From contig JAGKQI010000052.1 in the NCBI GenBank assembly GCA_018806915.1, positions 1,798,001 to 1,862,000 on the forward strand: 64,000 nucleotides of DNA. The letters run 5' to 3'. The position numbers and the translations under genes are program-made. The notes below the pieces were generated by a model, which saw only the letters and a program-made list of their open reading frames with translations, made no database searches and was not told where the DNA came from. Of this stretch, positions 1 through 40,206 are shown piece after piece; the first letter of the stretch is position 1; the number at the start of each line of letters is the position of its first letter. The stretch is from Phytophthora colocasiae. Lineage: Eukaryota > Oomycota > Peronosporomycetes > Peronosporales > Peronosporaceae.

Positions 1-597
1 CGCTGCGGATCTTAGCTTGGACGTGGAGCGAGTCGAGGATACCAGACACCGCCCCAACTGTAGTCTTCTTGCCTGCCAGACTGCTCTTCAAGTAGCACGC
101 AGGGTCTTTTGGATCCGTGTTGACAAAGGTATAACCCACACAACCAGATGTCTGCGAGCACTTATCACAGCAGTCCCAGGGATATTTACCGAAGGAAACG
201 CCAATGTCGTTGCCACTCAAGTCTGTATCCGTTAACTGCGTTGAACACTTGTCAGGGACGTCCTTGCACTGGTAGTAGTCGGCGTTCCAAGGCTGGCAGT
301 ACGTCCTGTCTGGACAACAGGACGTGCCTCTAGAGTTGCCACAGTAGCCCCCGTTCTCCGTGGCGCATGTAGTTGGTCCAGAAGTGGAGGCTATGCGTGG
401 GGACACTGCGGCAGAAACTGCACCAACGACCTTCTTCTTGATACCAGCGCTGCGCTTCAGATAGCAGTGTGTCTGGCCGTCCCAACCGTAGTTGACGAAC
501 GTGAAGGCGGCACATCCGGCGGTCTCGGAGCATTTATTGCAGCAATCGTCGGGAGCGTCAATCCAGTGATACTGGAGATGTCATCGCCATAGTAGTC
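1..597 (-). pseudogene. GH5 glucanase gene A, upstream duplicate fragment (CBM1-like/PAN part)
   Basis: This is the second copy of the PAN and CBM1-like region of glucanase gene A, read on the minus strand and cut by the window edge. It encodes the cysteine pattern of a PAN/Apple module (DCCDKC, GCVGYTFVN), a CBM1-like module ([17 protein letters not shown]) and part of a preceding PAN module. A run of five C near 350 keeps the frame open through the CBM1-like segment, whereas the downstream copy has four C and shifts. Conversely, three G near 552 break the frame here while the other copy reads through. It ends at the MULE target duplication and cannot encode a full enzyme. Confidence 0.75.
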
Positions 598-605
598 GGT
601 GTTGG

Positions 606-1261
606 GGTAGACTTTTAAATGGATCATATTCCGATCAACACAAAAACGGTCAACACCATAATTTTGCACTGGTCAAGGGATTTGGTCAAATCTATTGGTT
701 GACCTGGCCCGACATTCCATCTTTGGCTCTGTGCCCCACACTCCTCCTTACCCACTCCCTCCGACCCACTATGCAGCAAGAAGGCTCCCATCTTCAGTAT
801 CGACGCTGGAACTATCTCCCCCGTCATCCGCTGACACTCACGCCAGCCAGCAGTACTCGCTTAGAAAGCGTTCAGGTCGAAGCAGGAGCTCAGAGCGCAG
901 AGGCCTCTCGAGTCGGAGCTCGAACCCTCAACATGATCGAAGCCGAAACCGAAGCCGGAGTTCAGGGCGTGAGAGACACCGAACCAAGTCCCGGAGATCT
1001 GTGGAAGGGCGAAGCAGGAGCTGGAGTTCTGGGCATGGGCGACACCGATGCAGGAGCCGCAGTTTCGAACGAAGCAGGAGCCGGAGTCGGAATACCAGGC
1101 GTGAGCAACGCCGACGCAGGAGCCGGAGTTCCGAACGAAGCAGAAGCCGGAGCTCTGGACATGGTCGAGGCAGGAGCCGGAGGCGGAATTCCAGGCGTGG
1201 GCGACGCCCAAGTAGCAGTTCGGGGATTGAACGTCACGCAAGTCTGAGCAGCCCTCCTCGC
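606..1261 (+). mobile_element. Truncated MULE 5' end (duplicate copy)
   Basis: This is the left terminal region and first part of the MULE transposase frame. It duplicates 2387-3041 and includes the AT-rich terminus, the TTGACC-rich subterminal stretch and the arginine/serine-rich coding region. It stops at 1261, where GH5 sequence resumes on the minus strand. It has no transposase core and no right end, so it can only be a passive by-product of the tandem duplication. Confidence 0.85.
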
Positions 1262-2378
1262 ATCTGTATCTGGCTGCCAAGAAAGTCGCGAACTTGATCG
1301 AGTTGTCTACATTCGTCTGAGATGTACTCCACTTGGTTTCCCCATTAACTGGTGGCGACGTCGACTCGTATCCATTCTGACTGCCCTGGTGAGCATGAAG
1401 ACTCAGTACAACGGCAATATTGTACTTGACTGCCCAGTCGTTAATAAGGGTATCCACGTATTTGAGACCTCCTGGGGCGTACACATCCGCTTCGGTTCCT
1501 GGTGATGTGGTAGCATCACGAATGATCCAATGGCCCACTGGAACACGGACGGTATTGAGGACACTGGTACGTGCAATGGCTTTAATGTCTGCTTCCGTGA
1601 TCCAAGTCTTCCGATGTTCTTCGAAAGCTGCCTTTGGTTTTCCCGAGGTATTTCATCACGGTATACTCTCCTTGCCACGCGATATCATTGGGGACGTCCT
1701 TCCACAATGGCGAGTCCCAGGACATCCAGTTCTCACTGACAAACCAGCCACCGAGGTTGACGGACTTGGCCTGGACAGCCCCGCTGCGGATCTTAGCTTG
1801 GACGTGGAGCGAGTCGAGGATACCAGACACCGCCCCAACTGTAGTCTTCTTGCCTGCCAGACTGCTCTTCAAGTAGCACGCAGGGTCTTTTGGATCCGTG
1901 TTGACAAAGGTATAACCCACACAACCAGATGTCTGCGAGCACTTATCACAGCAGTCCCAGGGATATTTACCGAAGGAAACGCCAATGTCGTTGCCACTCA
2001 AGTCTGTATCCGTTAACTGCGTTGAACACTTGTCAGGGACGTCCTTGCACTGGTAGTAGTCGGCGTTCCAAGGCTGGCAGTACGTCCTGTCTGGACAACA
2101 GGACGTGCCTCTAGAGTTGCCACAGTAGCCCCGTTCTCCGTGGCGCATGTAGTTGGTCCAGAAGTGGAGGCTATGCGTGGGGACACTGCGGCAGAAACTG
2201 CACCAACGACCTTCTTCTTGATACCAGCGCTGCGCTTCAGATAGCAGTGTGTCTGGCCGTCCCAACCGTAGTTGACGAACGTGAAGGCGGCACATCCGGC
2301 GGTCTCGGAGCATTTATTGCAGCAATCGTCGGGGAGCGTCAATCCAGTGATACTGGAGATGTCATCGCCATAGTAGTC

Positions 2379-2386
2379 GGTGTTGG
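2379..2386 (+). repeat. MULE target-site duplication, left copy
   Basis: GGTGTTGG at 2379-2386 is repeated at 4669-4676 directly outside the right end of the element. Eight bases is within the 8-11 bp range known for MULEs. Keeping one copy leaves the glucanase reading frame intact. Confidence 0.8.
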
Positions 2387-4668
2387 GGTAGACTTTAAAT
2401 GGATCATATTCCGATCAACACAAAAACGGTCAACACCATAATTTTGCACTGGTCAAGGGATTTGGTCAAATCTATTGGTTGACCTGGCCCGACATTCCAT
2501 CTTTGGCTCTGTGCCCCACACTCCTCCTTACCCACTCCCTCCGACCCACTATGCAGCAAGAAGGCTCCCCATCTTCAGTATCGACGCTGGAACTATCTCC
2601 CCCGTCATCCGCTGACACTCACGCCAGCCAGCAGTACTCGCTTAGAAAGCGTTCAGGTCGAAGCAGGAGCTCAGAGCGCAGAGGCCTCTCGAGTCGGAGC
2701 TCGAACCCTCAACATGATCGAAGCCGAAACCGAAGCCGGAGTTCAGGGCGTGAGAGACACCGAACCAAGTCCCGGAGATCTGTGGAAGGGCGAAGCAGGA
2801 GCTGGAGTTCTGGGCATGGGCGACACCGATGCAGGAGCCGCAGTTTCGAACGAAGCAGGAGCCGGAGTCGGAATACCAGGCGTGAGCAACGCCGACGCAG
2901 GAGCCGGAGTTCCGAACGAAGCAGAAGCCGGAGCTCTGGACATGGTCGAGGCAGGAGCCGGAGGCGGAATTCCAGGCGTGGGCGACGCCCAAGTAGCAGT
3001 TCGGGGATTGAACGTCACGCAAGTCTGAGCAGCCCTCCTCGCTCAAGTAATACCGATGGCGATCGGCTGACAATACCTACTCATCCTAGGCTAGACCCGA
3101 CCACGACAACAGTACCTGTTGAAATAAGTGCGGCACCTACCAGGCGCAGGCATACTGTGTTGCATGCCGCTGGACACGCATTTACACGCTACAACCAGTC
3201 CGACGTTAGGACGTCGTACAGGTGCAGCGCGTATAGAAGCGCAAAATGCAAAGCGAAACTGCACTTCATTCACAAGAAGAACGAGTACGAGTTTCGCGAT
3301 GAGCACACGTTTCAGCGTGGCCACCGTGCCACGTTGCCGCCGGGACTGGATGTGAGTGAAGATATGGAAGAGGCTACTGATACTATGGCCCTGACACGAA
3401 TGGATCTTACTCCGGAACGTATTTGGAAGCTAATACGCGATGACTTCTACCCTGAATCGCTGTCTTTAGTTCAGTATGGACTTACACGCGAACAAGTAAT
3501 CCAGCGTGTACATCGGACTCGGCGAAGCCATTTCGGTGCAGACCTGCATGGTGTAGTGGAAGTCCCTCCGCTATCACTGGTACCAGGTAGCAGGCAGCCA
3601 TTTTTCCAATCCTACAGGTCCTACATGAATGGATCTATGCTGGAACGCTTGGTTGGATGGGCTCATCCAGAGCTTCTCAAGCTGCTAAAGTATAAGAGGA
3701 CTACGCTGTTTCTGAATGGGACTTTTCTCTGCGTACCTCAGCCATTCTACCAATGTGTAGTTATGATGGTATTTGATAACGCGACCGATCTATTTGTACC
3801 TGTGTTTTACACGCTGTGTACCGCCAAAACACAAGATACGTATTGGCATTTGATGGAGGCAGTGAATGTGGCTGCAGATGACAAAATTGAGCCAAGTGCG
3901 GTAGTTTGTGACTTCGAGGAAGGCTTGCAAGCTGCCGCTCAAGTGCAGTTTCCAGACGCGGATATTGTGGGATGCTACTTCCACTTTAAACAAGCATGTC
4001 GAAGGAAGATGAAAGCGCTCCAAATACCTGAGAGAGAAGCCGCTATTGCAATGAGGAAGGGAGTTTTGGACATGCTAACCGTCATTCCTCACGATAAGAT
4101 TGAAGGTCCTGGCATCCGGTATGTACAAGACAAAGTTCGCAGTATCTGCTTGGAAAAGAACGTATCTTTCACTGAGTCCCTGTGGGGATTATTCTGGTCA
4201 TATTTTCGTAAAACCTGGCTAAAAACCTACAAGCCGAGCGTTTGGAACGTTCATGACGTCGATGAATCCATGGTTAGTCGCACCAATAATCCTCTAGAGC
4301 GGTTCAATCGTGAGATTAACGCTGCGTTGCCGTCTCCCCACCCATCACTACCCGCTTTCGTCGCCATGATTCAAGTCCTCTCCCAACGTCACGTCGATCG
4401 AATCGATGACATGGCGAAGTGTCGTGCCAAGCAGCGTCCACGCCGCCGAAATATTGAGCCAGTGAATCTCTGTAGTCTTCGAATAGCGTCAATAAACTAC
4501 AATGTAGATATTCGTGAGCACATATCGTCACGGCTTACTTGGTGGCCTGGTGTTACATGATGTTCATGAAGTTTTCTTAGGCGATCAACTTTGGTCAACG
4601 TTTTTGAAGTGGTCAACGGATTTGGTCATTGACCTTTTTTGTTTATATGATCCATTTATAATCCTTCG
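2387..4668 (+). mobile_element. Mutator-like element (MULE), 2.28 kb
   Basis: The element lies between GGTGTTGG duplications and has imperfect terminal inverted repeats: both ends contain TAAATGGATCATAT reading inwards, about 9 bp from the tip. Immediately inside each end are clusters of GGTCAA/TTGACC words (2414-2490 on the left, 4580-4640 on the right), probable transposase binding sites. A single long transposase frame fills the interior. The element sits inside the 5' part of GH5 gene A. Confidence 0.85.
2551..4560 (+). CDS. MULE transposase with SR-rich N-terminus
   Basis: A 669-residue frame from ATG 2551; in-frame codons upstream to 2479 lack an ATG. Residues about 31-155 are an arginine/serine dipeptide-rich tract like the RS domains of splicing proteins. 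A FLYWCH-like zinc region follows (about 200-260, with spaced Cys and His and the EHTFQRGH segment), then a MULE DDE core. The second and third catalytic positions are visible as Asp454 in VVCDFEEG and Glu583 in NNPLERFN. The first, normally Asp in a DGTF motif, is Asn389 (FLNGTF). The frame is otherwise open from end to end, so the copy looks recent but probably catalytically dead. Family assignment rests on the DDE spacing and motifs. Confidence 0.88.
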   Translation: MQQEGSPSSVSTLELSPPSSADTHASQQYSLRKRSGRSRSSERRGLSSRSSNPQHDRSRNRSRSSGRERHRTKSRRSVEGRSRSWSSGHGRHRCRSRSFERSRSRSRNTRREQRRRRSRSSERSRSRSSGHGRGRSRRRNSRRGRRPSSSSGIERHASLSSPPRSSNTDGDRLTIPTHPRLDPTTTTVPVEISAAPTRRRHTVLHAAGHAFTRYNQSDVRTSYRCSAYRSAKCKAKLHFIHKKNEYEFRDEHTFQRGHRATLPPGLDVSEDMEEATDTMALTRMDLTPERIWKLIRDDFYPESLSLVQYGLTREQVIQRVHRTRRSHFGADLHGVVEVPPLSLVPGSRQPFFQSYRSYMNGSMLERLVGWAHPELLKLLKYKRTTLFLNGTFLCVPQPFYQCVVMMVFDNATDLFVPVFYTLCTAKTQDTYWHLMEAVNVAADDKIEPSAVVCDFEEGLQAAAQVQFPDADIVGCYFHFKQACRRKMKALQIPEREAAIAMRKGVLDMLTVIPHDKIEGPGIRYVQDKVRSICLEKNVSFTESLWGLFWSYFRKTWLKTYKPSVWNVHDVDESMVSRTNNPLERFNREINAALPSPHPSLPAFVAMIQVLSQRHVDRIDDMAKCRAKQRPRRRNIEPVNLCSLRIASINYNVDIREHISSRLTWWPGVT

Positions 4669-4676: not shown

Positions 4677-4959
4677 TATCAGGGATGCCACAGTTGGCAG
4701 GCTTTGGACGACATTGATAGTACCAGGGATTCCATGGCTGGCAGTAGTTACCAGACTCACAGCAACCAGGACCGCCCTGTTCGTTGCCGCAGAACTGCCC
4801 GGAGGACGCGCACTGACTGTTCACGACCGGAAGAAAAGATAGAGCCAACAGTAACAGTATCCTACGATGAACCATCTTTCCTTATTGTTTTGCAGGACGA
4901 ATCCACTGTGACGGTCTACCAAGAGTCCTTAATGAATGAGAAGATCGATGAGTCTAAAA

Positions 4960-5275
4960 TGTGACGGGGGTCACACAGCACTTCACACAGAGGAAGGCTT
5001 GGAGTATACAAACTCCTAGTGAACGGCAGTTCACTCGGTCCCCAAAGACTTGGGGAGACTAACTAAAGATTAGGTAGATTTAAGACTGAATATATTATAG
5101 ATACTTGTTAGCTTGGCCTGCAATACAAACTAAAAGATATCTATAGTGTAACCTATATAGAAGGTGATAGGTGGCTGTGGAGCCACCTGCCACGTGTCAC
5201 CATGATGTGTGACACACCAAATGTATCCACTTCGGAAGAGTGACTAAAGTCACTCTTCAATGTAACCCCGTTACA
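4960..5275 (-). repeat. gypsy-1 3' LTR
   Basis: Begins TG and ends CA in both orientations. It is near-identical to 12934-13248. Both tips are dyads: GTGAC-Gn-GTCAC at 4961 onward and TGTAACCCCGTTACA at 5261-5275. As the LTR next to the antisense frame at 5456, it would have to supply any antisense promoter. Confidence 0.92.
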
Positions 5276-5290
5276 TCCCCCCACTTAGAT
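5276..5290 (-). promoter_or_regulatory. gypsy-1 polypurine tract
   Basis: On the minus strand the sequence just before the 3' LTR reads AAGTGGGGGGA. It is purine-rich and directly adjacent to the LTR start, as expected for the plus-strand primer of reverse transcription. Confidence 0.75.
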
Positions 5291-5455
5291 TCGACTCTCG
5301 TCCAATCAGAGAAGAGAGAAAATCCCTTTCACATTTCTCTCTTCAATGTCGAAATCGATCGACCTGCCACCAGCTCTTATCGCTGCGGCTTCTGCTCTCA
5401 CAGAGCACAGGGCGCACTGCCAACGCGTACCAGGCTTCCTTGGAAGCCCAGCAAC

Positions 5456-7642
5456 ATGTCTGCAAAGGGTGCAAACCCAGACGCGCAAGCGTCTTCACGG
5501 AAGAAGGCTGCAAAGCCAACTTCCAAGCCAGCCAAGCCTCGCGGCAAGGCTTCGGCACTTCATGAGGCCACCGATGTGGCCTCCAGGGCTCTTAGCTCGC
5601 CCAGCAGCACTGCTGCGACGGCTAGCCCTAGCCAAAGGCGCAGTAGATCTCCGTCCCTACCGCCTGATACTCGACCGAATCCTCGGTTCGAGTATAGGGA
5701 CCATAGTCCCGGTTCCTGGAGTCCTTCCGAACAGGAAGCGACTCTTGTCAGCTACTCGGGCGACGAGAGCGACAACGGCGACGCCGAGGGCAAGCCTGCG
5801 GCGGGTGCTCCGACCACGGAGGAGCACCATGGAGACAAGGACACCGCGTCCAAGTCTCCCGACAACACCAGCGGCCGTGGTGGCGACACTAAGCCACCAC
5901 CTGTCAGACATCTGACACTTGCTGAAGGGCGCGAACGCGCCCGGGCCATTCTGGCAGAGGAGAAGGTGCCCAGCACCAACTCCAAGAAGCGTCATGCTTC
6001 AAAGTCTCCTTGTCAAGACATGACAAGGAGAAGGGAGCTCGAAGAGATCTTCGGCCCCGACGACGTCGTCGATGACGCCGATGAGGAGGAGGGGCTCATC
6101 CGCGAGCCCCAAGAGATCACTAACGATCTCGATGAGCAGCAAGAGCTCTTTCAGGCTGCTCAACAGCCAATGCGCACCGCACCAACGGTCGCACGTGAGT
6201 CTCATCAACACGATGAGGACTCTGCCCACCAGCGGGGCTACTACCCGCCCGATCAAGGCTCGGGAGCTGCTGCGTATCTCGAGCAGCTCCAGGACCCGCG
6301 TCCTCTCATAGGGGGCCATACCTCCAAAGGCGCCTATGAGCGGGCATTGGTTCAGAAAGAACCTCTCTTTCAAGGCAACCTTTCTGTTGCCAGGTGCGTG
6401 CTTCTAGCACAGCACCGAATTCCTCTCAAGGAATTCACCTCGCTTCGCAAGAAGCCTGAGACTAAGGGTGGTCTCAAGCCCACATGGGGTTACCCATGGG
6501 TTCTCCCAGAGAACACTGCGTCGTGGGTCGACGCTGAGGACCTCTTTTGGCAATGGGTCCGGTTGACAGTCAAGTCAACCCAGGAGTACCACAAACTCCG
6601 TGACGAAGATCACCTGGAGGACATCCTCCGCCTCCGGGACCTTCGTGTCCAGTTTGCCCACCTCGTAGGCAAACGGCAGCTCCATCATCAGATGGAGCGA
6701 CTGAGAACTGAGTCTCAGTCCAGCGCTCACAATGAGCGCGGGTATGGAACACATACGCCTGTGTCCCAACCCCGTTCAGCGGCTAAGAAGCCGCGGACTA
6801 CTTACGAGGCTGCCGTCTTGCCTCTTCCCAGCACGCGACAGCCTTCGGGCAGTCAACCTGGAGCCGCTCAATCGGCTCCCAGGTACTCTGCGACGCAGGG
6901 TACCCGCGCCACTTCACTCGGAGCTGGCGCTTCCCACCGCGACGCCGCTCCTGGAGAACCCGCTCCACATGGTAGTGGCGTTCTCCGTTCCGGTCAAGCA
7001 AGGCCGGAGGAGGCCTCGCCCGACTGCTCTTTCGAGCCGTCCCCGACGTTGGGAACTCAGAGGCCTTCGACTGGGCCTCTTGACCAACTTGTTGCTCAGC
7101 AACAGGAGGAGATCCGCCTCCTCCGAGCGCGTGTCCTCGCGCTTGAGGTCGCTCTTGGTCTTGGTGTTGGCGGCCAGGCTGCCTCTGCAGTCGGCCAACC
7201 TGGTGTCGTGCGCCTACTGGAAGACCTGCGTCTCGCGATGCAGGGTCTTCATGGTCGTGTAGACCGTAGTGCCTCTTCGCGGGCACTTGACTCCCTTCGT
7301 CAAGAGGTCTACGACCTTCAGGCGACGATGTCTCGCCGGGAGTCGCAACCGTACGCGTACTCCCCGTCGTCGCGCGACTCGCGCCTAGGGGCCTACTCGC
7401 TTGGCCCCTCGGTGTATCCACACCGCTCGTACCTTCCACCGGGGTACGGCTTCGCCCCTGGGAGTCACCAAACTCCCTATTACCTGGGGCGCTCTGCGCC
7501 TGACGCTCAACCTCGCGTCGAGGAGGTTCACTCTCCTCCTCGCGGCCGCCTTCAACCTCTTGAGGGGCCGCATGACCCTGAGGGTCATGGTACCGCTTCA
7601 GACGACCCACATAAAACGTCGGGTGGGTCGTCATCGACTTAG
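5456..7642 (+). CDS. Antisense 728-aa protein candidate inside gypsy-1
   Basis: This frame runs against the element's gag-pol. It is open from 5240, and the first sensible ATG is 5456 (MSAKGANPDAQ), 181 bp inside the LTR. Residues 1-190 are basic then low-complexity Ser/Pro/Asp/Glu. Residues about 280-430 are a compact, mixed-composition region rich in Trp and Leu (LFWQWVRL, LPENTASWVD). Residues about 540-580 hold a Leu/Glu-heptad coiled coil (QQQEEIRLLRARVLALEV). The C-terminus is Tyr/Pro/Gly-rich. Its last 845 bp overlap the integrase tail and chromodomain on the other strand. I do not recognise the family. Gypsy-2, a related element, has no comparable frame and about 600 bp less sequence between integrase and LTR. 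It could be an accessory gene or a captured host sequence. Confidence 0.55.
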   Translation: MSAKGANPDAQASSRKKAAKPTSKPAKPRGKASALHEATDVASRALSSPSSTAATASPSQRRSRSPSLPPDTRPNPRFEYRDHSPGSWSPSEQEATLVSYSGDESDNGDAEGKPAAGAPTTEEHHGDKDTASKSPDNTSGRGGDTKPPPVRHLTLAEGRERARAILAEEKVPSTNSKKRHASKSPCQDMTRRRELEEIFGPDDVVDDADEEEGLIREPQEITNDLDEQQELFQAAQQPMRTAPTVARESHQHDEDSAHQRGYYPPDQGSGAAAYLEQLQDPRPLIGGHTSKGAYERALVQKEPLFQGNLSVARCVLLAQHRIPLKEFTSLRKKPETKGGLKPTWGYPWVLPENTASWVDAEDLFWQWVRLTVKSTQEYHKLRDEDHLEDILRLRDLRVQFAHLVGKRQLHHQMERLRTESQSSAHNERGYGTHTPVSQPRSAAKKPRTTYEAAVLPLPSTRQPSGSQPGAAQSAPRYSATQGTRATSLGAGASHRDAAPGEPAPHGSGVLRSGQARPEEASPDCSFEPSPTLGTQRPSTGPLDQLVAQQQEEIRLLRARVLALEVALGLGVGGQAASAVGQPGVVRLLEDLRLAMQGLHGRVDRSASSRALDSLRQEVYDLQATMSRRESQPYAYSPSSRDSRLGAYSLGPSVYPHRSYLPPGYGFAPGSHQTPYYLGRSAPDAQPRVEEVHSPPRGRLQPLEGPHDPEGHGTASDDPHKTSGGSSST

Positions 7643-8816
7643 GCAAGTCGATCGTGTAGGCAGCGCCGTGCCTACTCAGGACCTTGAAGGGTCCAATGAA
7701 GCGATGCTTCAACTTGTTGCTCACCGTGGAGCTAACAGTGTTAAGAGGTAGGTTCCTAGTGTCGAGTTGCACTAAGTCCCCCACATTAAATACACTTAAG
7801 TTTCCTCTCCCATGTTGGTCTGAGTACTCCTTTTGCTTGTCCTGTGCGAGTGCCATTGCATCTCGCACCCGGCTGATCACATTCAGCCTGTTGCCGACAA
7901 ATGTCGTCAACTTCTTCCGCAGTGCGGCTGGTTCCACACCGGAAACCTGGGAGGAAAGCTCTTTCCGAGCCTCTCCCCCACTTACTCTCGAAGCCGCGGT
8001 GCCCCCACCCAGTGTGAGCGGCACCTGGGGGTTCCGAAGCCCATTCAAGTAGAACGGCGTGAACCCCGTTGACGCGTGTACCGCGTTGTTGAGTGCAAAC
8101 TCAACGATAGGCAGCTGCGCTGACCAAGAGCGCGGCGCCTCAGCGCAAACACTGCGCAGCACGTCCTCAACCACTCGGTTGACGCGCTCAGTCTGACCAT
8201 CGGTCTGCGGATGGTCCGCTGTTGACATCGTCAACCGTGTTCCAAGCAATTGGAACAGCGTTTTCCAAAACGCAGCGGTAAACCGCGGGTCGCGGTCAGA
8301 GACAACAGTCTCAGGCAACCCGTGATAGCGGAAGACGCTATCAAGGAACAACTTCGCAGTTTGTTCCCCGGTAATGGTCTCAGAGACCGGAGCAAGATGC
8401 ACCATCTTGCTCAACCGGCATACAAACACCACAATGCCGGTGTTCTTCTGGTCATCGGCCGGAAGGCCGAAGACAAAGTCGAGACTCATCGACTTCCAGC
8501 AGTCCAGTGGGACTGGCAGGCTCTGCAGCGGAGCCGACGCGTGCCCCGCAGGCTTCACGCGCTGACATGTTTCACATGTCTTGATGTACTTGGCCACCCA
8601 CTTGTACATGTGGGCCCACCAAAACATCAGAGAGACCCCATGATAGGTCTTCTCTCGGCCCAAGTGGCCACTCGAAGGCACATCGTGTGCCTCGTGAAGT
8701 ATATCATACTTCAGATCCTCGTCGTTCGGAACAACGACCCGCGGAGGATCCCCGGGCTCCACCCGATAGTGGAGCAGGAGCGGTGGAGCCGTGCCCGCTG
8801 TCGAGGCGTAAGCCAT
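6798..8816 (-). CDS. gypsy-1 integrase with C-terminal chromodomain
   Basis: An open stretch of about 672 codons with no true ATG start; it is the 3' part of pol separated by a frameshift near 8800. It shows the HHCC zinc region (SSGHLGREKTY, TCETCQRVKP), the integrase core with Asp in SLDFVFGLP, Asp in VSDRDPRF and Glu in QTERVNRV, then a GPF/Y-like segment (RFIGPFKVL). A long disordered linker follows, and a chromodomain near the end (HYHVERVL, KWRGYPASQSTWEP). The chromodomain places it among chromoviruses, which target histone-marked chromatin. The linker and chromodomain overlap the antisense frame. Confidence 0.88.
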   Translation of the reverse strand: MAYASTAGTAPPLLLHYRVEPGDPPRVVVPNDEDLKYDILHEAHDVPSSGHLGREKTYHGVSLMFWWAHMYKWVAKYIKTCETCQRVKPAGHASAPLQSLPVPLDCWKSMSLDFVFGLPADDQKNTGIVVFVCRLSKMVHLAPVSETITGEQTAKLFLDSVFRYHGLPETVVSDRDPRFTAAFWKTLFQLLGTRLTMSTADHPQTDGQTERVNRVVEDVLRSVCAEAPRSWSAQLPIVEFALNNAVHASTGFTPFYLNGLRNPQVPLTLGGGTAASRVSGGEARKELSSQVSGVEPAALRKKLTTFVGNRLNVISRVRDAMALAQDKQKEYSDQHGRGNLSVFNVGDLVQLDTRNLPLNTVSSTVSNKLKHRFIGPFKVLSRHGAAYTIDLPKSMTTHPTFYVGRLKRYHDPQGHAAPQEVEGGREEESEPPRREVERQAQSAPGNREFGDSQGRSRTPVEGTSGVDTPRGQASRPLGASRATTGSTRTVATPGETSSPEGRRPLDEGSQVPAKRHYGLHDHEDPASRDAGLPVGARHQVGRLQRQPGRQHQDQERPQARGHALGGGGSPPVAEQQVGQEAQSKASEFPTSGTARKSSRARPPPALLDRNGERHYHVERVLQERRRGGKRQLRVKWRGYPASQSTWEPIERLQVDCPKAVACWEEARRQPRK

Positions 8817-9709
8817 TCGACCTTGGCATCCGTGCCAGCGGACAAATACCGCACAATAGGGGCGAGGGCGTCATCGTCCTGATACGCCAAGCGTATTCGA
8901 TCGTAAAGATCCGTCGTGGCCCGACTAATATGAGCGAACTCATAGTCGGGCCTGCGCGACAAAGCGTCGGCAAGCGTGTTGAGCTTGCCAGGCTTGTATT
9001 CAACGCGGAAGTTATACTCCGCGAAGAATGACAGCCAACGCGCCATCCGCTGCGATAAGTGCGGCGTATGGATGGCTGTCCGCAAGGACGCGTGGTCCGT
9101 ATAGACCACAAAGGGCCTTGAGCCCAGAAGATGCACCCTGAACTTGACAAGGGCATACTTCATCGACAAGAGTTCCTTGTCGTGAACGGGATAATTCCGT
9201 TCGGCAGCCTTCAGCTGCCTGGACTGGAACGAGATCACCCTATCTCGTCCCTCATCGTCCTGTTGCAATAGCGCACAGCCAATTGCATAGTCGGAAGCGT
9301 CACAGACAACGCTAAACGACTTGGCATCGTCCGGCAACGCCAGGACGGGCGCGCATTGCAAGCTCGCCTTGATGCTATCAAAAGCATCCTGGTGCTGGCG
9401 CTCCCAGCACCACTCGGCCTCCTTCTTCAGAAGGTCCGACAAAGGCTTTGCGAGTCCCGCGTAGCCAGCACTGTACTTGTGCAAGTAGTTGGCTAAGCCC
9501 AACCACTTCCTCAGGTCCTTCTGTGACCGAGGAACAGGCCATGCCGCAATGGCTTTGACCTTGTCAGGATCCGCTCGGACCCCGACGCTGCTGACGAAGC
9601 AGCCGAGGACCTTAATCTCCTCAGCTGCGAAGACGCACTTGTCGATGTTGGCATAGAGCTTGTTAGCTCTCATGACCTCAAACACTCGACGGAGGTGCTC
9701 TCGATGCAC
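8711..9709 (-). CDS. gypsy-1 reverse transcriptase C-terminus and RNase H
   Basis: This segment encodes the RT thumb (FVSSVGVRADPDKVKAI, WLGLANYLHKYS) and the RNase H domain (VVCDASDYAIGCALLQQDD, VYTDHASLRTA, LADALSRRPDYE). It is separated from the RT catalytic segment by a one-base frameshift near 9720: homologous codons continue in another frame at KTAIEVH. A second frameshift near 8800 separates it from integrase. It is part of a single ancestral pol. Confidence 0.85.
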   Translation of the reverse strand: MHREHLRRVFEVMRANKLYANIDKCVFAAEEIKVLGCFVSSVGVRADPDKVKAIAAWPVPRSQKDLRKWLGLANYLHKYSAGYAGLAKPLSDLLKKEAEWCWERQHQDAFDSIKASLQCAPVLALPDDAKSFSVVCDASDYAIGCALLQQDDEGRDRVISFQSRQLKAAERNYPVHDKELLSMKYALVKFRVHLLGSRPFVVYTDHASLRTAIHTPHLSQRMARWLSFFAEYNFRVEYKPGKLNTLADALSRRPDYEFAHISRATTDLYDRIRLAYQDDDALAPIVRYLSAGTDAKVEWLTPRQRARLHRSCSTIGWSPGILRGSLFRTTRI

Positions 9710-9711
9710 CT

Positions 9712-10242
9712 CTATAGCCGTCTTGCCTCCTCGGCACGGCTATGGACGAATATATCGTCAAAGTACGTCTGCGTGAACGCACGCAAAGGTCTAAACAACT
9801 GTGTGACCAAGCGATTGAAGGTCGCTGGTGCGTTGGATAGACCTTGTGGCATTACCAGCCACTCCCAGAGCATACCGCTCGGCGTGCTCACGGCCGTGAG
9901 CGGGATATCACACTCCCGCATCAGGATCTGGTAGTATCCATCCACCAGATCCAGCGCGCTATACAGCGTGCAGCCGGCCATGTTGTTCAACAACACATCC
10001 TTGCGAGGGATCGGCGTCTGTGCTGGCACAGTCGCGCTGTTCAGCTTATTGTAAGCATGAACCAGACGCCACTTCCCGTTCGGCTTGCGAACGCAGAAGG
10101 TTGGCGTCGAGTGCGGGGACTTCGATTCCCGCACCATTCCCGCTTTCGCCTTAGCGGCGAAGAACGCGTCAATGACGTCGCTCTGCTCTCGGGGCAGGGG
10201 CCATTGACGCGTGACACAATACTGTGCCTGGCACGAGATCAA
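9712..10242 (-). CDS. gypsy-1 reverse transcriptase catalytic segment
   Basis: Contains RT fingers and palm: YCVTRQWPLP, FCVRKPNGKWRLVH, SALDLVDGYYQI, MPQGLSNAPATFNRL and the active-site motif TYFDDIFVHS, where FDD replaces the more common YDD/LDD. Frameshifts occur at both ends: around 10240-10260 two indels separate it from protease, and near 9720 one separates it from RNase H. The enzyme cannot be made as one polyprotein from this copy. Confidence 0.87.
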   Translation of the reverse strand: MISCQAQYCVTRQWPLPREQSDVIDAFFAAKAKAGMVRESKSPHSTPTFCVRKPNGKWRLVHAYNKLNSATVPAQTPIPRKDVLLNNMAGCTLYSALDLVDGYYQILMRECDIPLTAVSTPSGMLWEWLVMPQGLSNAPATFNRLVTQLFRPLRAFTQTYFDDIFVHSRAEEARRL

Positions 10243-11717
10243 TCTCGTGCCTGATCCTCGGTCTGGTGGGAGCTTTGAGGTGGGTCCTTGGACACCACGT
10301 CCTCAAACTCCTTCACTAAAGGATACAGCGGATCCTTTGGATTCTTCAGAATCTCGGAGCCCGTGCGCGACGCACGTTGCTTCCGGAACTCCTCCAGGAC
10401 GTCTTCGTCCATCACTGAGGAGGAGTTCAACTCCTCTGGAGTGGGCTCCGGCCTAAGGAGAACCATCTCCGATATCTCCCCGGCCTTCAACTCGGCCAGG
10501 AAGTCCTCCATCGCGACTTCCTCGAGGTTCAATAGCTCTGATACCTCAGGCAGGGGTGCCAACTCGATGGCCCCCGCCTTCACGCGATGCCCGGTCACGC
10601 CGTCGAAGATGTGATAGCATTCTTCGACCGACTGTGACCTAGGAGCCTTTAGCTCCTGTCCCAAGTCCTCGTGGACTTCTTCGGGATGGTATTCTACCAA
10701 CCCCGGCTTACGACCATGGCGTGGGGTTAACTTACCCACGCCAGGTGATGCCACTACGATGGCATCACGAGCCCTCATGGCTCCGTGCGGAACTGCGTTA
10801 CCCGCATCGGAAGCACCCTTGGTGTCTTCCTGATCAGTTATGGTCTGAGCGACCTTGCGTGGAACTACTTCTCTAACGCCTGGTGATGCCACTACTTCGG
10901 CATCACGAGCCCTCGTGGCTCCATGCGGAACTCTGTTACCCGCATCAGTTATGGTCTGAGCGACCTGGCGTCGAACTACTTCTCGTACGCCTGGCGATGC
11001 CACTACTTCGGCATCGCGAGCCATCTTGGCTTCCTGCGGAACTCTTTGATCCGCTTGTGGACCTAAGTTACCCACCTGGTTAGTGCTCTCGGGCACTACC
11101 ACAGTCGCAGCCTGTACGGCGCTGCGACTTCGTGCGTGGGGCCCTGCTATCGTTGCAGACCCACACGTAGGGCAAGGGCCTCCGCCCGTTGCCCCGGCCA
11201 TCCATGGCCCACGATCACTTCTCGTGTGGGGCGATGTAGCACCGACTACACCAGCCCCCAAATACTCCTCGGACGCTGCCGCGTCCTGGCGGTTCCAGCG
11301 AACGCCCTTAGTCCTGACAGAGGTGGGAACATGACTCACCAAAGCTCTGTCAGAGACTGCAGGCCGGCTAGCCCCAATGGCTTTGCCGCGCCAATCGATC
11401 CAGGGCTCGTGCTTCTCAAGCCACGGCATCCCTAGGATCAAGTCGTACTTGTCCATCTCGAGGACAATGAACGACTCCACGCTGTCGAAGTCCTCAAACT
11501 TCACAGCCAGGTCCACCTGGACCTTTGGTACTTCCACCACCGTACCATCGGCTAGTCGTACGGCGACTAGCCCACTTCCCTTGCTCTCACGTAGAGCGTC
11601 CTCAAACTTGCCGCGATTCCTTGCGACAGTTTGTCGGCGAGCAAATTTCTTGCTCGCCCCAGAGTCTATCAAGACTCTAAAGGGGTTGTTAAACCCCCGT
11701 ACACTCGCGTGTACCAC
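10239..11717 (-). CDS. gypsy-1 protease and repeat-containing spacer
   Basis: The N-terminal 100 residues are a retropepsin, with the active-site motif VLIDSGASKKF and the flap/hydrophobic segment VESFIVLEMDKYDLILGMPW. The following 280 residues are a low-complexity spacer containing three imperfect tandem repeats around PHGATRARDAEVVASPGV. The C-terminus is acidic (PEPTPEELNSSSV) and leads towards RT. It overlaps the end of gag by 29 bp in another frame. Confidence 0.8.
   Translation of the reverse strand: MVHASVRGFNNPFRVLIDSGASKKFARRQTVARNRGKFEDALRESKGSGLVAVRLADGTVVEVPKVQVDLAVKFEDFDSVESFIVLEMDKYDLILGMPWLEKHEPWIDWRGKAIGASRPAVSDRALVSHVPTSVRTKGVRWNRQDAAASEEYLGAGVVGATSPHTRSDRGPWMAGATGGGPCPTCGSATIAGPHARSRSAVQAATVVVPESTNQVGNLGPQADQRVPQEAKMARDAEVVASPGVREVVRRQVAQTITDAGNRVPHGATRARDAEVVASPGVREVVPRKVAQTITDQEDTKGASDAGNAVPHGAMRARDAIVVASPGVGKLTPRHGRKPGLVEYHPEEVHEDLGQELKAPRSQSVEECYHIFDGVTGHRVKAGAIELAPLPEVSELLNLEEVAMEDFLAELKAGEISEMVLLRPEPTPEELNSSSVMDEDVLEEFRKQRASRTGSEILKNPKDPLYPLVKEFEDVVSKDPPQSSHQTEDQARD
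10735..11060 (-). repeat. Coding minisatellite in gypsy-1 protease-RT spacer
   Basis: Three imperfect units of roughly 105-130 bp start near 10740, 10876 and 10990. All contain GATGCCACTAC.TCGGCATC and the following CGAGCC segment on the plus strand. They encode a repeating RDAEVVASPGV peptide. Confidence 0.75.
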
Positions 11718-12849
11718 CAGCAGCCCACCGCTGCCCTTCTCCGCTTTGAGAGTCCCAAGACTCTCTGGGGCTAAGTCTCCACTGCGTATGCCTCCCGCAC
11801 CACCCGCATGGGGACTTAGTGTTTCCCCAGTAGGGCGCCCCGCCCCTACTGGTCCCCGGAGTTCCCCTGACTCTTGGGCGCCGGCTTCTTCCAGCGGCCC
11901 TTAGAGCCTTGAGGCTTGGAAGACCTCTTCCATTGCCCCCAGAGGGGCAGACACGTGCGAAGTGTCCGAAACGCCCGCACTCGAAACAGCGGATGCGTTT
12001 CTGCTCGGCGAGCCCCAAGTCCATAGGGGCTGGTCCCGATCCTGCTCCATTCCCAGGAGCACTGGCCGACGCCGTCGTCGGCCCGCTGTGGCCTTGCCAC
12101 GCAGAGGCAGGAGTCTGAGCCTGTGTATGGCTGTACTCCTCCTGGAGCGCGACTTGAATCGCCTCCTCCATCGTGTTGACCTGCACGCGGAACAGTTGCG
12201 TGCGGGCCGGGCTTACTCTTAAGCCGTCCATGAACACAGTTACTTGGATGTGTTCAGGTAGGGGGTTCCCTACCAGAGATGCCGCGAGAACGCGCATCTC
12301 TTGGATGTACTCGTGCAGGTCACGTTTCCCTTGCTTGCAGGCTAGGAAGCGTGACCGCTGGCGATACTCATAGTTCGCCGGGAGGAATGCGGCCCGAAGC
12401 TGTTCGCACAGCTGGGCCCAGGATGTAAAACATCCAGGCGACGTCGCTTCGCGCGTGTACGCCCATGTCTTCGCTCGACCCCCGAGGTTAGACAGCGCGA
12501 AAGCGACCCGAAGTCGCTCCACCGAGATGAGAGCCGCCTCCACGGCGAGCTCAACTTCTCGGATCCAGAAGTGAAGGTTTTCACCTTCTTTCCCTTCATA
12601 GGGAAGAACCTTGAGTCTTAAAGGATTGGGTTGAACCGGCCTCGGTTCAACCACAGGAGCCTCAAAGGTTCCTCGAACGTGCTCAATGAGCCCACGTTCG
12701 TACATGTCGAACGCCGCCACGCGTTCGACCTGCTCGGCCGGCGTCGCCGCCGCCAAGCTTCGGAAGGCATCCATCCCAAAGATGCCCGCCATCTTCCGGA
12801 CCGACTCAAACTGAGAGTCGGTCAAGTGAGGAAACTCACTTCGATCCAT
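11689..12849 (-). CDS. gypsy-1 Gag
   Basis: ATG 12849 is the first true start. It has a retrotransposon capsid-like domain (FWIREVELAVEAALI, LSNLGGRAKTWAY, RQRSRFLACKQGKRDLHEY) followed by a CCHC zinc knuckle (CFECGRFGHFARVC). The tail after the knuckle is Gly/Arg-rich and leaves the frame just before the protease. Gag assembles the particle and packages element RNA. It is intact over its length in this copy. Confidence 0.88.
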   Translation of the reverse strand: MDRSEFPHLTDSQFESVRKMAGIFGMDAFRSLAAATPAEQVERVAAFDMYERGLIEHVRGTFEAPVVEPRPVQPNPLRLKVLPYEGKEGENLHFWIREVELAVEAALISVERLRVAFALSNLGGRAKTWAYTREATSPGCFTSWAQLCEQLRAAFLPANYEYRQRSRFLACKQGKRDLHEYIQEMRVLAASLVGNPLPEHIQVTVFMDGLRVSPARTQLFRVQVNTMEEAIQVALQEEYSHTQAQTPASAWQGHSGPTTASASAPGNGAGSGPAPMDLGLAEQKRIRCFECGRFGHFARVCPSGGNGRGLPSLKALRAAGRSRRPRVRGTPGTSRGGAPYWGNTKSPCGWCGRHTQWRLSPRESWDSQSGEGQRWAAGGTRECTGV

Positions 12850-12913
12850 GGTGGCCAACTACTTCTGGCCACAGAGGATTCAGGTAATCAATCTACCCGC
12901 GTAGGCGTAGGAT

Positions 12914-12931
12914 TGACTACGAGTGCTACCA
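12914..12931 (-). promoter_or_regulatory. gypsy-1 primer-binding site
   Basis: Two bases inside the 5' LTR the minus strand reads TGGTAGCACTCGTAGTC. TGGTAGC matches the start of many initiator-Met primer sites. The same site with one change (TGGTAGCACTTGTAGTC) is used by gypsy-2. I cannot confirm the primer tRNA. Confidence 0.7.
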
Positions 12932-12933
12932 AG

Positions 12934-13248
12934 TGTGACGGGGTCACACAGCACTTCACACAGAGGAAGGCTTGGAGTATACAAACTCCTAGTGAACGGC
13001 AGTTCACTCGGTCCCCAAAGACTTGGGGAGACTAACTAAAGATTAGGTAGATTTAAGACTGAATATATTATAGATACTTGTTAGCTTGGCCTGCAATACA
13101 AACTAAAAGATATCTATAGTGTAACCTATATAGAAGGTGATAGGTGGCTGCGGAGCCATCTGCCACGTGTCACCATGATGTGTGACACACCAAATGTATC
13201 CACTTCGGAAGAGTGACTAAAGTCACTCTTCAATGTAACCCCGTTACA
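12934..13248 (-). repeat. gypsy-1 5' LTR
   Basis: Near-identical to 4960-5275 (three differences). It starts, in the element's sense, with TGTAACGGGGTTACA and ends with GTGACCCCGTCACA. Confidence 0.92.
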
Positions 13249-19000: not shown

Positions 19001-21820
19001 TCATCCCAAAAGCCTTGGAAGCGATAGAGATGATGATAATCGTGGGGACATTCCGCTATCCCGCGTACAGCCTGCAACGACAGGCAGTTGGCTAATTGAT
19101 CTACCTACACCATCATCACCGCGAGGTGACGCTGTTCCAACTCGTTTCCGTAAGGATCCACGTGGTGTTAACGTTGCTGGGGTCAAGCTGCCTGCCGGAA
19201 TTTCAGTGATGCTTTTGCGTCTGATAGCGCCACCCTTCAGTTCTTTATCCTCGCCCATAAACGCTTTCACGAGATCCAATCCGTAAATTTCCTGCAGACT
19301 TCTGTCACTAGTAGATAGTGCGTCATTCAAGAGCTGCGCACCGCCAGCATTACTTCGGTTGTTACTACTATTCAGCTCTTTTCCTCGACGATATTGTGCT
19401 TGAAAGCGTCTCGATTCTGCGACTAGCCAATCTGCGTCGACGTTCTCCGAGATATCGATAATTAAGACGGGAGAAACGTTTGCCACGCTATAGACCTCCA
19501 CCCTCCCGTCGTCACTAACTGCAACACTTTTAAGCCCAAGAACACCGTTATTGCTCTTGCTAGAGACAAGCGACTCGATTCCTTTAGCCACAACACGAAC
19601 TCCGTCGAGCGAAATGCAGTTCTGGCGTAGATCGAGCTCTCGAATTCTTGCTCGGCTCGTCTCACTGACGAGGCCAACCACTAACTTCTTCAGAAACACG
19701 AGTAAACACACCATTCCCTTACTCGTGAGGTGGTTGCAGCGCATATCGATACGCTGCAATCTAACTCCACCTTCACCTTCAAGCATCTTCAGAATTGGAC
19801 GTAGATCGTCATCTTCTAGCCAACATTCGCGTATTTCCAGACAATCTGAGGGCCACACAACACATGCGGAAGCTCTAGCAAAAGCATCGGCGAATTTGTG
19901 CACAAGCCTTGACTTGGCGTTTTGTAGGGCGTGGAACTCGGTTGTTAGCTCTGTGAATTTTCCTGCCAATTGCTGCCGCTTATCTTGAACCTGATTCTTC
20001 TGCTCCAGAAGCTCTCGAATGGAACTTTCAGTTTGTTGACGAAGAGCTTCCAGTTGACTTTTCAGTAGATTTCTCTCCAACTCCACAGCCGCTCGAGCTC
20101 GAGACTCGCGATTAACGTCTTTAACGAGTCGGTGGATTCGCTGCTTCTGTTCAATCGTGAGTGCTTCGTGTTTCTCCAAAAGTTGTTTCGTTTCTCGATG
20201 CCGAAGCTCCTGCTGCTTCTCAGCGGCAAGTCGTTTGTTCAGTGTTTCTTTCATTTCTTCGAGCTGCTTCTGTAACGCTGCAAGTTCTCGTTTCGCTCCA
20301 GATAGAACTTTACTTTGTTTGTCAGTATCTTCAGCAGATATTTTCTTGTGTAACGCTAGCTCGTTTTCAAGTTGCTTCTTCCAGTCGAGAGAATCTTGCA
20401 ACACTCGTTCAAGCTCTTGCATCCGACATTGAGCTGCTAGTAACTGCTCTTCAGCGCATTCTCGACGGCCAAGAGCTTCATGAAGTCGATTCTCGACGTC
20501 CTGGAGCTTCAAAGTGAGCTCGTACTGTTTATTACGTCGCATGACCAGCTCGTTCTGCACCTTCTCGATTTCCATTTGGTAATTTAAATGAGAAGACGAC
20601 AGCTCCTCCTGCAGAAATTTCCTCTCTCTTCGCACTTTTTCCTGTAAAGCACTCACTGCTGATGCCTTCTCTTCTGCTTGTCTCGTTCTGTACAGCACTT
20701 CCACTTCACTTTCAGCCGAACGTGCGATGTGGTCGTGATGTGAACTTCGAAGCTGCTCGCACTCTCGTTCACTATCTTCAAGTCGTACCTTGAGTTCCTC
20801 AGTATTCCGTTCTTGAGCCTCCAGAGCCTGCAATAACTTCTCGTTTTGAACCGTAGCAATCTCCATAGCCTTTTCCCTCCCATCCGCCTGATTGCGACTG
20901 ACCTGCAGTGCATCAACCTCGGCCTCCAATCGGTCGATCTTGCGCTGCCGCCGTACCAAGTCGTTCTCCTTCGAGATGATATTCCTCTGCAGCTGCTCCA
21001 AAGCAGCTTCAAGCTCATCCAACTGCACTCGAAGCTGGTCATTCTGCCCCGACAACAGCCACACTTCTCGTGTTTTAGCTTCAATCGCATCATCTCGTAG
21101 TCGAATGAGCTGGTTCTCGTGAAAACTTCGAGGTGAGAGACACGCGTCCGCCTTCTCTGGCTGTAAGTCCTCCACATTCTTCTCAAGACGACGGATAGTT
21201 CCCTGCTGTCGTTCCAACTCCTTTTTTAACTGTCTCTCTGTCTCAACTGCCGATAAAAGCTCCCCGTTCTTCTTGGTTAACGTTTGCTCTCTTGCATCCA
21301 GTGCTGCACAGACCATTGCGAAGTCTTCTTCATCTTTTATCACCTGCTCTTTAAGCTTCTGTATCTGGCCATTCACTTTCTGAGCTTTGAGCTCCAGAGC
21401 TTGAGCTTCCGTTGTCTTAGCATCCAGCTTACTTGTTAATGATCTGATCTGTTCCAACAATTCATCGACGTACTCGGTTTTCCGAGTGAGAAGAAGCTCC
21501 TTTGCATTGATCTCCGCTGCCTGCTTCTCGCCTAGTAACTTGAAAACTTGGGCCGTGCCATCAAGCTCGACGATAATCTGCTTGAGCTGTTGAATCCGAG
21601 CTTGAACTGCAACCGGATCATGTAGATCAACCTGTTCCTCCTCAGGTTCTTCCAATCTGCTTCCTTCCGACATGGACAAATTAGTATTAGAAGCCAATGG
21701 TCGCTTCAAAGATAGTATCTTCTCCATGTCCGCCTTAATCGTAGCTCTGGTTCTCCAGTTGATATCATTGAGGCTTGTTGCATCACAGTCACTTGTGGCC
21801 TCAGAAGCACATTGTTCCAT
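19001..21820 (-). CDS. Long coiled-coil protein with C-terminal leucine-rich repeats
   Basis: Open frame of 939 codons from ATG 21820; internal ATGs at 21727 and 21673 are also plausible starts. Residues about 60-640 are almost continuous heptad coiled coil (Leu/Glu/Gln/Lys-rich, many LEK and QL repeats). Residues about 650-760 contain leucine-rich repeats of the RNI type (LQRIDMRCNHLTSKG, IRELDLRQNCISLDGV). The C-terminus is Ser/Arg-rich and probably unstructured (TPRGSLRKR). No catalytic motif is seen. Long coiled coils joined to LRRs occur in centrosomal and axonemal scaffolds, but that role is only a guess. Its 5' end overlaps the 5' end of the divergent gene at 21726. Confidence 0.85.
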   Translation of the reverse strand: MEQCASEATSDCDATSLNDINWRTRATIKADMEKILSLKRPLASNTNLSMSEGSRLEEPEEEQVDLHDPVAVQARIQQLKQIIVELDGTAQVFKLLGEKQAAEINAKELLLTRKTEYVDELLEQIRSLTSKLDAKTTEAQALELKAQKVNGQIQKLKEQVIKDEEDFAMVCAALDAREQTLTKKNGELLSAVETERQLKKELERQQGTIRRLEKNVEDLQPEKADACLSPRSFHENQLIRLRDDAIEAKTREVWLLSGQNDQLRVQLDELEAALEQLQRNIISKENDLVRRQRKIDRLEAEVDALQVSRNQADGREKAMEIATVQNEKLLQALEAQERNTEELKVRLEDSERECEQLRSSHHDHIARSAESEVEVLYRTRQAEEKASAVSALQEKVRRERKFLQEELSSSHLNYQMEIEKVQNELVMRRNKQYELTLKLQDVENRLHEALGRRECAEEQLLAAQCRMQELERVLQDSLDWKKQLENELALHKKISAEDTDKQSKVLSGAKRELAALQKQLEEMKETLNKRLAAEKQQELRHRETKQLLEKHEALTIEQKQRIHRLVKDVNRESRARAAVELERNLLKSQLEALRQQTESSIRELLEQKNQVQDKRQQLAGKFTELTTEFHALQNAKSRLVHKFADAFARASACVVWPSDCLEIRECWLEDDDLRPILKMLEGEGGVRLQRIDMRCNHLTSKGMVCLLVFLKKLVVGLVSETSRARIRELDLRQNCISLDGVRVVAKGIESLVSSKSNNGVLGLKSVAVSDDGRVEVYSVANVSPVLIIDISENVDADWLVAESRRFQAQYRRGKELNSSNNRSNAGGAQLLNDALSTSDRSLQEIYGLDLVKAFMGEDKELKGGAIRRKSITEIPAGSLTPATLTPRGSLRKRVGTASPRGDDGVGRSISQLPVVAGCTRDSGMSPRLSSSLSLPRLLG

Positions 21821-40095: not shown

Positions 40096-40206
40096 CCGGT
40101 CTTTAAATAAATTTCCATAATTATATTTAAGCCCGGACTATTATTAAATTTTAGCTATCTCGTCCTCCAGGCATACCAAAAATCTGTTCACATAGCAACT
40201 TTCACC

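What the first reader, a model, noticed from the sequence alone, without database searches (positions are those of the whole stretch)
5456..7642. A 728-codon antisense gene candidate driven from the 3' LTR side of a gypsy chromovirus
Opposite to gag-pol, beginning 181 bp inside the 3' LTR, gypsy-1 carries an open frame of 728 codons from ATG 5456. It has a structured-looking middle, a heptad coiled coil and a Tyr/Pro-rich tail. Random antisense frames rarely reach this size, and about 1.5 kb of it lies outside pol, where no sense gene exists. Antisense genes read from the 3' LTR are known in some retroviruses, and extra frames at this position are known in some plant gypsy elements. I know of no described case in oomycete chromoviruses. 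It could be an accessory or regulatory gene, or a captured host gene.
Basis: partly seen in the sequence, partly recalled or inferred. Interest (0 to 1): 0.8.

Follow-up and report, generated by a model that had tools for sequence, protein, structure and literature searches.

The report
Conserved backward gene in Phytophthora retrotransposon
A jumping gene of a Phytophthora plant pathogen carries an extra protein gene written backwards across its tail end; related proteins occur in other Phytophthora species and the gene shows signs of natural selection, so it is probably a working helper gene of a kind described before in plants and fungi.

Summary
Confirmed, and stronger than proposed. The 728-codon frame 5456-7642(+) lies antisense to gag-pol, beside the 3' LTR; 1342 bp lie outside pol and 845 bp overlap the integrase tail. 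It encodes a protein family: 124 database relatives (120 listed, 33-53% identical), every listed one with an organism name being Phytophthora except a probable contaminant. Its helical core, wholly outside pol, is 52-63% identical in 13 relatives compared. Among 52 same-genome copies, substitutions shared by at least 3 copies are biased to synonymous sites in this frame alone (N/S 0.47 of expectation); single-copy changes are neutral. The overlap looks divided: opposite the chromodomain only pol is constrained, opposite the pol linker only the antisense coiled coil (suggestive). A related chromodomain element in the window lacks the gene. No usable Pfam, PDB or viral fold match. Most likely it is an accessory regulatory gene, analogous to antisense genes of plant Grande/Retand and fungal Boty elements, but without the plant TRP28 domain. 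Transcription, promoter and function are untested. New variant of a known kind.

The parts
4957..5275 (-). 3' LTR of the gypsy element (element runs on the minus strand); TG...CA ends at about 4960 and 5275
   Evidence: 98.7% identical to 12931-13248; ends read
5276..5286 (-). likely polypurine tract next to the 3' LTR (pyrimidines on the + strand)
   Evidence: direct reading; inferred
5287..5455 (+). leader of the antisense gene: CCAAT at 5302, pyrimidine-rich stretch around 5325-5345, one upstream ATG at 5346 in another frame
   Evidence: motif scan with oomycete motifs of PMC3599244 (passages); no transcript data
5456..7642 (+). antisense gene, 728 codons
   Evidence: relatives; selection; ATG kept in 49 of the 49 copies that have letters there (52 examined)
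6248..6736 (+). conserved, mostly helical core, residues 265-427, wholly outside pol
   Evidence: 52-63% identity to 13 relatives; 198-residue AlphaFold2 piece with mean pLDDT 78.4 and pTM 0.74; N/S 0.46 of expectation for changes with minor count 2 or more
7076..7342 (+). coiled-coil-like helices, residues 541-629, opposite the pol SH3-chromodomain linker
   Evidence: helices 541-566, 582-603, 608-629; antisense N/S 0.54 of expectation, pol 1.54 (minor count 2 or more)
6825..6974 (-). pol chromodomain, opposite a predicted disordered stretch of the antisense protein
   Evidence: Pfam Chromo, pol residues 615-664; over 6804-7020 pol N/S 0.20 and antisense 1.64 of expectation; disorder
6798..8816 (-). 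3' part of pol: integrase, Tf2-1-like SH3, chromodomain
8711..9709 (-). pol: RNase H (and a weak match to the end of RT)
9712..10242 (-). pol: RT
10239..11717 (-). aspartic protease region
11689..12858 (-). gag with CCHC knuckle
12931..13248 (-). 5' LTR; a primer-binding-like TGG follows it in sense direction

Best explanation
The frame is a genuine accessory protein gene of a Phytophthora chromodomain-bearing gypsy element, on the opposite strand, and kept by selection while the element multiplies. Shown: protein-level conservation between species and constraint on this frame outside pol. Suggested: division of the overlap into a pol-constrained and an antisense-constrained part. Predicted: a helical core, coiled coils and disordered charged flanks. 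Inferred: it is transcribed from the 3' LTR or the 180-bp leader, enters the nucleus (KKPR motif at residue 444), self-associates through the coiled coils, and acts in trans as a regulator of the element, most likely by binding its nucleic acid or chromatin to control transcription, silencing or integration, as proposed for antisense proteins of plant elements. I give about 0.93 to 'real protein-coding gene' and about 0.5 to 'nuclear regulator' given that.
For: 124 relatives at E<=0.001, the 120 listed 33-53% identical; 285 with a profile of the core. Core outside pol 52-63% identical in 13 of 13 compared relatives. Substitutions outside pol with minor count 3 or more: 31 synonymous of 66 against 19.4 expected, z 3.2, the only one of six frames with z above 2; singletons 107 of 380 against 105.0. 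An earlier run with 32 copies agrees (22 of 47 against 14.1, z 2.5). Resampling for minor count 2 or more: observed count reached in 9 of 2000 draws outside pol, 5 of 2000 in the core, 31 of 2000 in the coiled coil. Same arrangement elsewhere: tails of 11 of 120 relatives match, in a non-gene frame, DNA opposite the integrase SH3 end, up to 77% identical. Folded core and coiled-coil-like helices.
Against: No RNA, ribosome or peptide data. The leader has an upstream ATG (5346) in another frame and no FPR motif. Constraint is milder than in pol (0.47 against 0.11), weak for changes in exactly two copies (0.83), and not significant in the N-terminal part 5456-6247 (z 1.1 and 1.9 at the two thresholds). 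Tested whole, the overlap is significant for neither gene. The indel test does not help: shared indels outside pol are multiples of three in 4 of 5, but three of those four lie in one short tract at 6074-6078, and in pol the positive control fails, 0 of 6. Only 9 of 44 fully covered copies are open over the whole frame. Nuclear entry rests on one short motif; no DNA-binding domain was recognised. Four of 120 relatives match pol in sense direction; two of these (P0021, P0111) weakly, but P0012 and P0096 clearly join pol-sense and antisense-type segments, so the arrangement may not be uniform or these models are chimaeric.
Confidence: 0.5

Rival explanations
1. The protein is real, but its job is to blunt host silencing: it binds or sequesters small RNA machinery or double-stranded RNA formed by the converging transcripts.
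For: P. infestans LTR elements yield sense and antisense small RNAs (passages of PMC3522703); convergent transcription would create double-stranded RNA (inference); charged flanks and coiled-coil-like helices fit a scaffold.
Against: No RNA-binding or suppressor-like domain recognised; no fold match; a related element in the same window has identical LTRs, hence moved recently, and lacks the gene.
Confidence: 0.2
2. The protein is a structural or packaging partner of Gag or integrase (a second capsid-like or assembly protein) rather than a regulator.
For: Mostly helical core plus coiled-coil-like helices; kept by selection during multiplication.
Against: No profile match between its core and the element's own Gag (hhalign probability 0.2%); no match at E<=0.001 among PDB or viral structures.
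Confidence: 0.15
3. A host gene captured by an element ancestor and carried as cargo.
For: The gene is missing from the related gypsy-2 in the window, so it was gained or lost between the two lineages.
Against: No listed relative carries a recognised cellular function beyond the name 'ABC superfamily', which domain search does not bear out; no NCBIfam family in 3 proteins. Both relative lists are capped and their DNA context was not seen.
Confidence: 0.07
4. The antisense RNA is what matters (regulatory or silencing trigger); the open frame is incidental.
For: Antisense transcripts without coding capacity are known in other elements (passages of PMC7264820).
Against: Codon-position bias in this frame only and 52-63% amino-acid identity with relatives from other species in a stretch without a sense gene.
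Confidence: 0.04
5. A chance open frame, held open by the constraint on pol and by composition.
For: The last 845 bp do overlap pol; antisense conservation opposite the chromodomain (around residues 457-507) can be explained by pol.
Against: 1342 bp have no sense gene (16, 6 and 20 stops in the three minus-strand frames); 0 of 1000 random elements exceed 452 codons; gypsy-2 has no plus-strand stop-free frame over 239 codons within 40201-43590.
Confidence: 0.02

Closest known systems
aORF-3R antisense genes of plant gypsy elements (maize Grande gene23, rice RIRE2, Silene Retand; TRP28/Transposase_28, PF04195)
   Same: Antisense protein gene between pol and the 3' LTR, in most copies of a family and conserved; regulatory role proposed; gene23 region reported transcribed antisense from an upstream promoter (passages and one section of PMC7264820); nuclear location reported (same passages; a reference title in PMC11963269); PMC11963269 abstract and one section
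   Different: No TRP28 domain here; host is an oomycete; this element has a chromodomain, Retand is described as non-chromovirus; the gene runs into integrase
brtn antisense gene of Boty in Botrytis cinerea
   Same: Antisense extra gene in an LTR element of a filamentous plant pathogen (a reference title and a methods passage in PMC8365987; one section of PMC7264820)
   Different: Its sequence was not at hand, so homology was not tested; function and selection not compared
Chronos and other Ty3/Gypsy elements of oomycetes
   Same: Oomycete gypsy element with a C-terminal chromodomain (passages of PMC5348765)
   Different: Chronos elements carry an added plant-related RNase H, for which Pfam gives no match here; the word 'antisense' does not occur in that paper's text
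Antisense genes of retroviruses such as HTLV-1 HBZ
   Same: Works like: antisense accessory gene near the 3' LTR (HBZ recalled; the antisense promoter in the HTLV 3' LTR is in a passage)
   Different: No sequence relation claimed or tested; promoter here unknown

Membership tests
aORF-3R class (antisense extra gene between pol and 3' LTR) | Opposite to gag-pol and between pol and 3' LTR | tested here: met
   61% lies outside pol, the rest overlaps pol
aORF-3R class (antisense extra gene between pol and 3' LTR) | Present in most copies of the family, with conservation like other element proteins | tested here: inconclusive
   40 DNA places, the window's own included, cover most of the gene and 52 copies carry at least part of it, but copies were found by searching with this gene, so copies lacking it would be missed; constrained, though less than pol
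aORF-3R class (antisense extra gene between pol and 3' LTR) | Antisense transcript from its own promoter | not testable with these tools
   no RNA data; motif scan only
TRP28 / Transposase_28 (PF04195) antisense proteins | TRP28 domain | tested here: not met
   no match at E<=1 in P0001 and PF04195 not among the 15 families found in 56 members; the genome-wide search found none, but its controls did not ring either
Chromodomain-bearing Ty3/gypsy (chromovirus-type) | Chromodomain after integrase, with Tf2-1-like SH3 | tested here: met
Chromodomain-bearing Ty3/gypsy (chromovirus-type) | RT falls in the chromovirus clade | not tested
   no RT tree was built
Chronos elements of oomycetes | Additional plant-related RNase H in pol | tested here: not met
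   only RT_RNaseH-type matches in the pol pieces scanned; pol of this copy is broken into several frames
Boty brtn | Sequence homology to brtn | not tested
   brtn sequence not at hand
ATP-binding cassette superfamily (database name of many relatives) | ABC ATPase domain | tested here: not met
   no Pfam match in P0001; no ABC family among the 15 found in 56 members at E<=1

The most novel reading that the evidence does not exclude
A retroelement accessory protein spread through Phytophthora, with an unmatched helical fold, whose gene was extended by overprinting across the integrase-chromodomain linker: the two opposite genes share DNA by placing each one's folded part against the other's disordered part, and the protein works with the chromodomain integrase in targeting or protecting the element.
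Probability: 0.25. Interest if true: 0.8.

Novelty: new variant of a known kind. Interest (0 to 1): 0.62.

Why it matters
Antisense accessory genes of LTR elements are described in plants and fungi, with functions still unknown. Here is one in a separate eukaryotic lineage, without the plant TRP28 domain, which suggests that elements gained such genes more than once. The partly overlapping layout gives a natural test of how two opposite genes share DNA. It also suggests that many Phytophthora gene models named 'ATP-binding cassette superfamily' are transposon proteins, which matters for gene counts in these pathogens.

Tried and rejected

Limits of the selection test: 52 copies besides the window (L002-L008, L013, L014, L016-L038, L041-L060), not all that the genome holds; L001, L009-L012, L015, L039 and L040 were left out because they are the window itself or places already counted. 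Codons are read from the window copy, and the class of a change is its minor count among copies plus window. Expectation: the same base changes dropped at random on equal bases of the region. Allelic copies in the assembly could put neutral changes in the shared class. Sub-regions and thresholds were not corrected for multiple testing.

Full report
What is there. The window lies in a 92.5-Mb genome of 105 contigs. A host gene at 19001-21820(-) is 95% identical to a P. citrophthora protein and 86% to one of P. oleae, so the host is a Phytophthora near P. citrophthora. The element runs on the minus strand from about 13248 to 4957 with LTRs 98.7% identical. Pfam finds gag, protease, RT, RNase H, integrase, Tf2-1-like SH3 and a chromodomain in its minus-strand frames. 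Pol of this copy is split over several frames, so this copy is not intact. The antisense frame 5456-7642(+) codes for 728 residues. Its ATG is 181 bp past the inner edge of the 3' LTR; 1342 bp lie between that ATG and the end of pol, and 845 bp overlap pol.

Not chance. Of 1000 dinucleotide-Markov sequences of element length none had a stop-free frame over 452 codons. Over the 1342 bp outside pol the window copy has 0 stops in this frame and 7, 24, 16, 6 and 20 in the other five. A related chromodomain element in the same window (gypsy-2, LTRs 40212-40632 and 47365-47785, 100% identical) has no plus-strand stop-free frame over 239 codons within 40201-43590, and the protein has no match there (best E elsewhere in the window 1.4). 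Its SH3-chromodomain linker is 106 residues, against 188 in this element.

Relatives. A search of 5.8 billion proteins gave 124 hits at E<=0.001, of which 120 were listed, 33-53% identical; a profile of the core gave 285, of which 120 were listed. In both lists every hit that bears an organism name is Phytophthora (13 species in the two lists together) except P0011, filed under Aphanomyces stellatus. P0011 is 91% identical to P. nicotianae protein P0146 over 315 residues, so contamination or recent transfer is likelier than vertical descent. Thirteen relatives aligned with P0001 (A2) show 52-63% identity in residues 265-427 against 29-48% in residues 1-264. This core lies wholly outside pol, so its conservation cannot come from the opposite gene.

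Same place in other species. Protein data show this in part. Of 120 relatives, 99 match the overlap part of the antisense frame; 11 have stretches that match, in a plus-strand frame that is not the gene's own, DNA opposite the pol linker and SH3 end (best: 53 residues at 77%, P0072 of P. lilii); 4, 7 and 1 match other such plus-strand frames. Such similarity in a non-gene frame, in proteins whose gene-frame identity is about 40%, is most simply explained by constraint on the opposite strand, so these genes probably also run antisense to integrase. The comparison ran without composition correction, so the weaker matches may be spurious. Against uniformity, 4 of the 120 match pol in sense direction, two weakly (P0021, P0111) and two clearly (P0012, P0096). 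These may be chimaeric gene models or rearranged elements.

Selection within the genome. I compared 52 copies with the window copy over 5276-8816. Singletons, mostly post-insertion decay, are neutral in the antisense frame outside pol (107 synonymous of 380, expected 105.0). Changes with minor count 3 or more are 31 synonymous of 66, expected 19.4, z 3.2, N/S 0.47 of expectation; no other frame passes z 2 (the frame sharing its third positions on the other strand reaches 1.8). Minor count of exactly 2 shows only a weak trend (27 of 86, expected 23.7). The positive control, pol outside the overlap, gives 0.11, z 7.5. A first run with 32 copies gave the same picture (22 of 47, expected 14.1, z 2.5). 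Resampling for minor count 2 or more reaches the observed count in 9 of 2000 draws outside pol and 5 of 2000 in the core. The N-terminal part 5456-6247 alone is not significant. The whole overlap tested at once is significant for neither gene (antisense 0.81, pol 0.67). Indels do not help: 4 of 5 shared ones outside pol are multiples of three (19 of 79 single-copy ones), but three of the four sit in one tract, and in pol outside the overlap 0 of 6 shared ones are.

A divided overlap. Split by domain, the two genes separate (minor count 2 or more). Over 6804-7020, opposite the chromodomain, pol is constrained (0.20, z 4.3) and the antisense frame is not (1.64). Over 7076-7342, which encodes the antisense coiled coil and lies opposite the pol linker, the antisense frame is constrained (0.54, z 2.5) and pol is not (1.54). 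Over 7343-7642 neither is. Resampling: pol 1 of 2000 draws over the chromodomain, antisense 31 of 2000 over the coiled coil. With the threshold at 3 the chromodomain signal holds (0.14, z 3.7) but the coiled-coil signal falls to 0.61, z 1.5, so this part is suggestive, not settled. The phase explains why a division is needed: the third codon position of each gene falls on the second of the other. The folded parts of one protein thus tend to lie opposite a linker or disordered part of the other.

Decay of copies. Over the whole frame 9 copies are open, 29 frameshifted and 6 stopped of 44 fully covered, with 8 more partly covered. Over 1122 bp, 20 of 49 antisense and 12 of 38 pol stretches are open, with 3 and 14 partly covered. 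Both genes decay after insertion; the antisense gene decays no faster. The ATG is kept in 49 of the 49 copies that have letters there.

The protein. AlphaFold2 on the 198-residue core piece with 72 sequences gives mean pLDDT 78.4 and pTM 0.74, mostly helix. The whole protein (56 sequences) has mean pLDDT 52.0 and pTM 0.36: the core, helices at 541-566, 582-603 and 608-629, and long low-confidence flanks. That these helices form a coiled coil is inferred; no coiled-coil program was run. A KKPR motif at 444 follows the nuclear-localisation pattern as I recall it. No usable PDB, viral or family match.

How it probably works. Shown: conservation and constraint expected of a protein-coding gene. 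Inferred: antisense transcription from the 3' LTR or leader, where a CCAAT box and a pyrimidine-rich stretch stand but no INR+FPR pair (motifs from PMC3599244, passages); nuclear entry; self-association; action in trans as a regulator. The analogy is Grande gene23 and the TRP28 proteins of Retand, for which DNA binding and a regulatory role are proposed (PMC7264820 passages and one section; PMC11963269 abstract, passages and one section). It is not a TRP28 protein by domain search.

Literature. Nine paper searches were answered; their listings and abstracts name no such gene in an oomycete. Seven papers were opened, none read whole: PMC11963269, PMC7264820, PMC5348765, PMC3522703, PMC3599244, PMC8365987 and PMC12477816 (passages, and the sections named above). 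The library lacks most subscription papers, so absence from print is not established. PMC7264820 records antisense genes also in fungal Boty. The verdict is therefore a new variant of a known kind.

Noticed in passing
window 40212-47785: A second, related chromodomain gypsy element with 100% identical 421-bp LTRs, hence probably a recent insertion, lacking the antisense gene and with a shorter SH3-chromodomain linker.
   Followed up: partly
database proteins, e.g. P0002, P0015, P0022: Many relatives of this transposon protein are named 'ATP-binding cassette (ABC) superfamily' in public Phytophthora records though no ABC domain was found in the 56 members scanned; probably a propagated misnaming.
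   Followed up: partly
P0011 (Aphanomyces stellatus, 6.9-kb contig): 91% identical over 315 residues to a P. nicotianae protein: contamination of that assembly or recent horizontal transfer.
   Followed up: partly
P0012 and P0096: Gene models joining pol-sense segments and antisense-family segments in one protein; could be local inversions, head-to-head elements or faulty models.
   Followed up: partly
window 1-2867: Direct repeats spaced about 1780 bp and 99-100% identical: a tandem duplication at the left edge; beside and partly over it a frame with MULE transposase and FLYWCH matches, 2479-4560.
   Followed up: no
window 33302-37702: Single 1466-codon copia-type (RVT_2) polyprotein frame, open throughout.
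   Followed up: no
window 51942-59488: Another gypsy-type element: a 1676-codon pol frame (Pfam) after an 814-codon frame that looks like gag by eye.
   Followed up: no
window 10695-11054: Three imperfect copies of a 111-bp unit downstream (in sense direction) of the protease domain; gypsy-2 has another repeat at a seemingly comparable place, 45267-45594.
   Followed up: no
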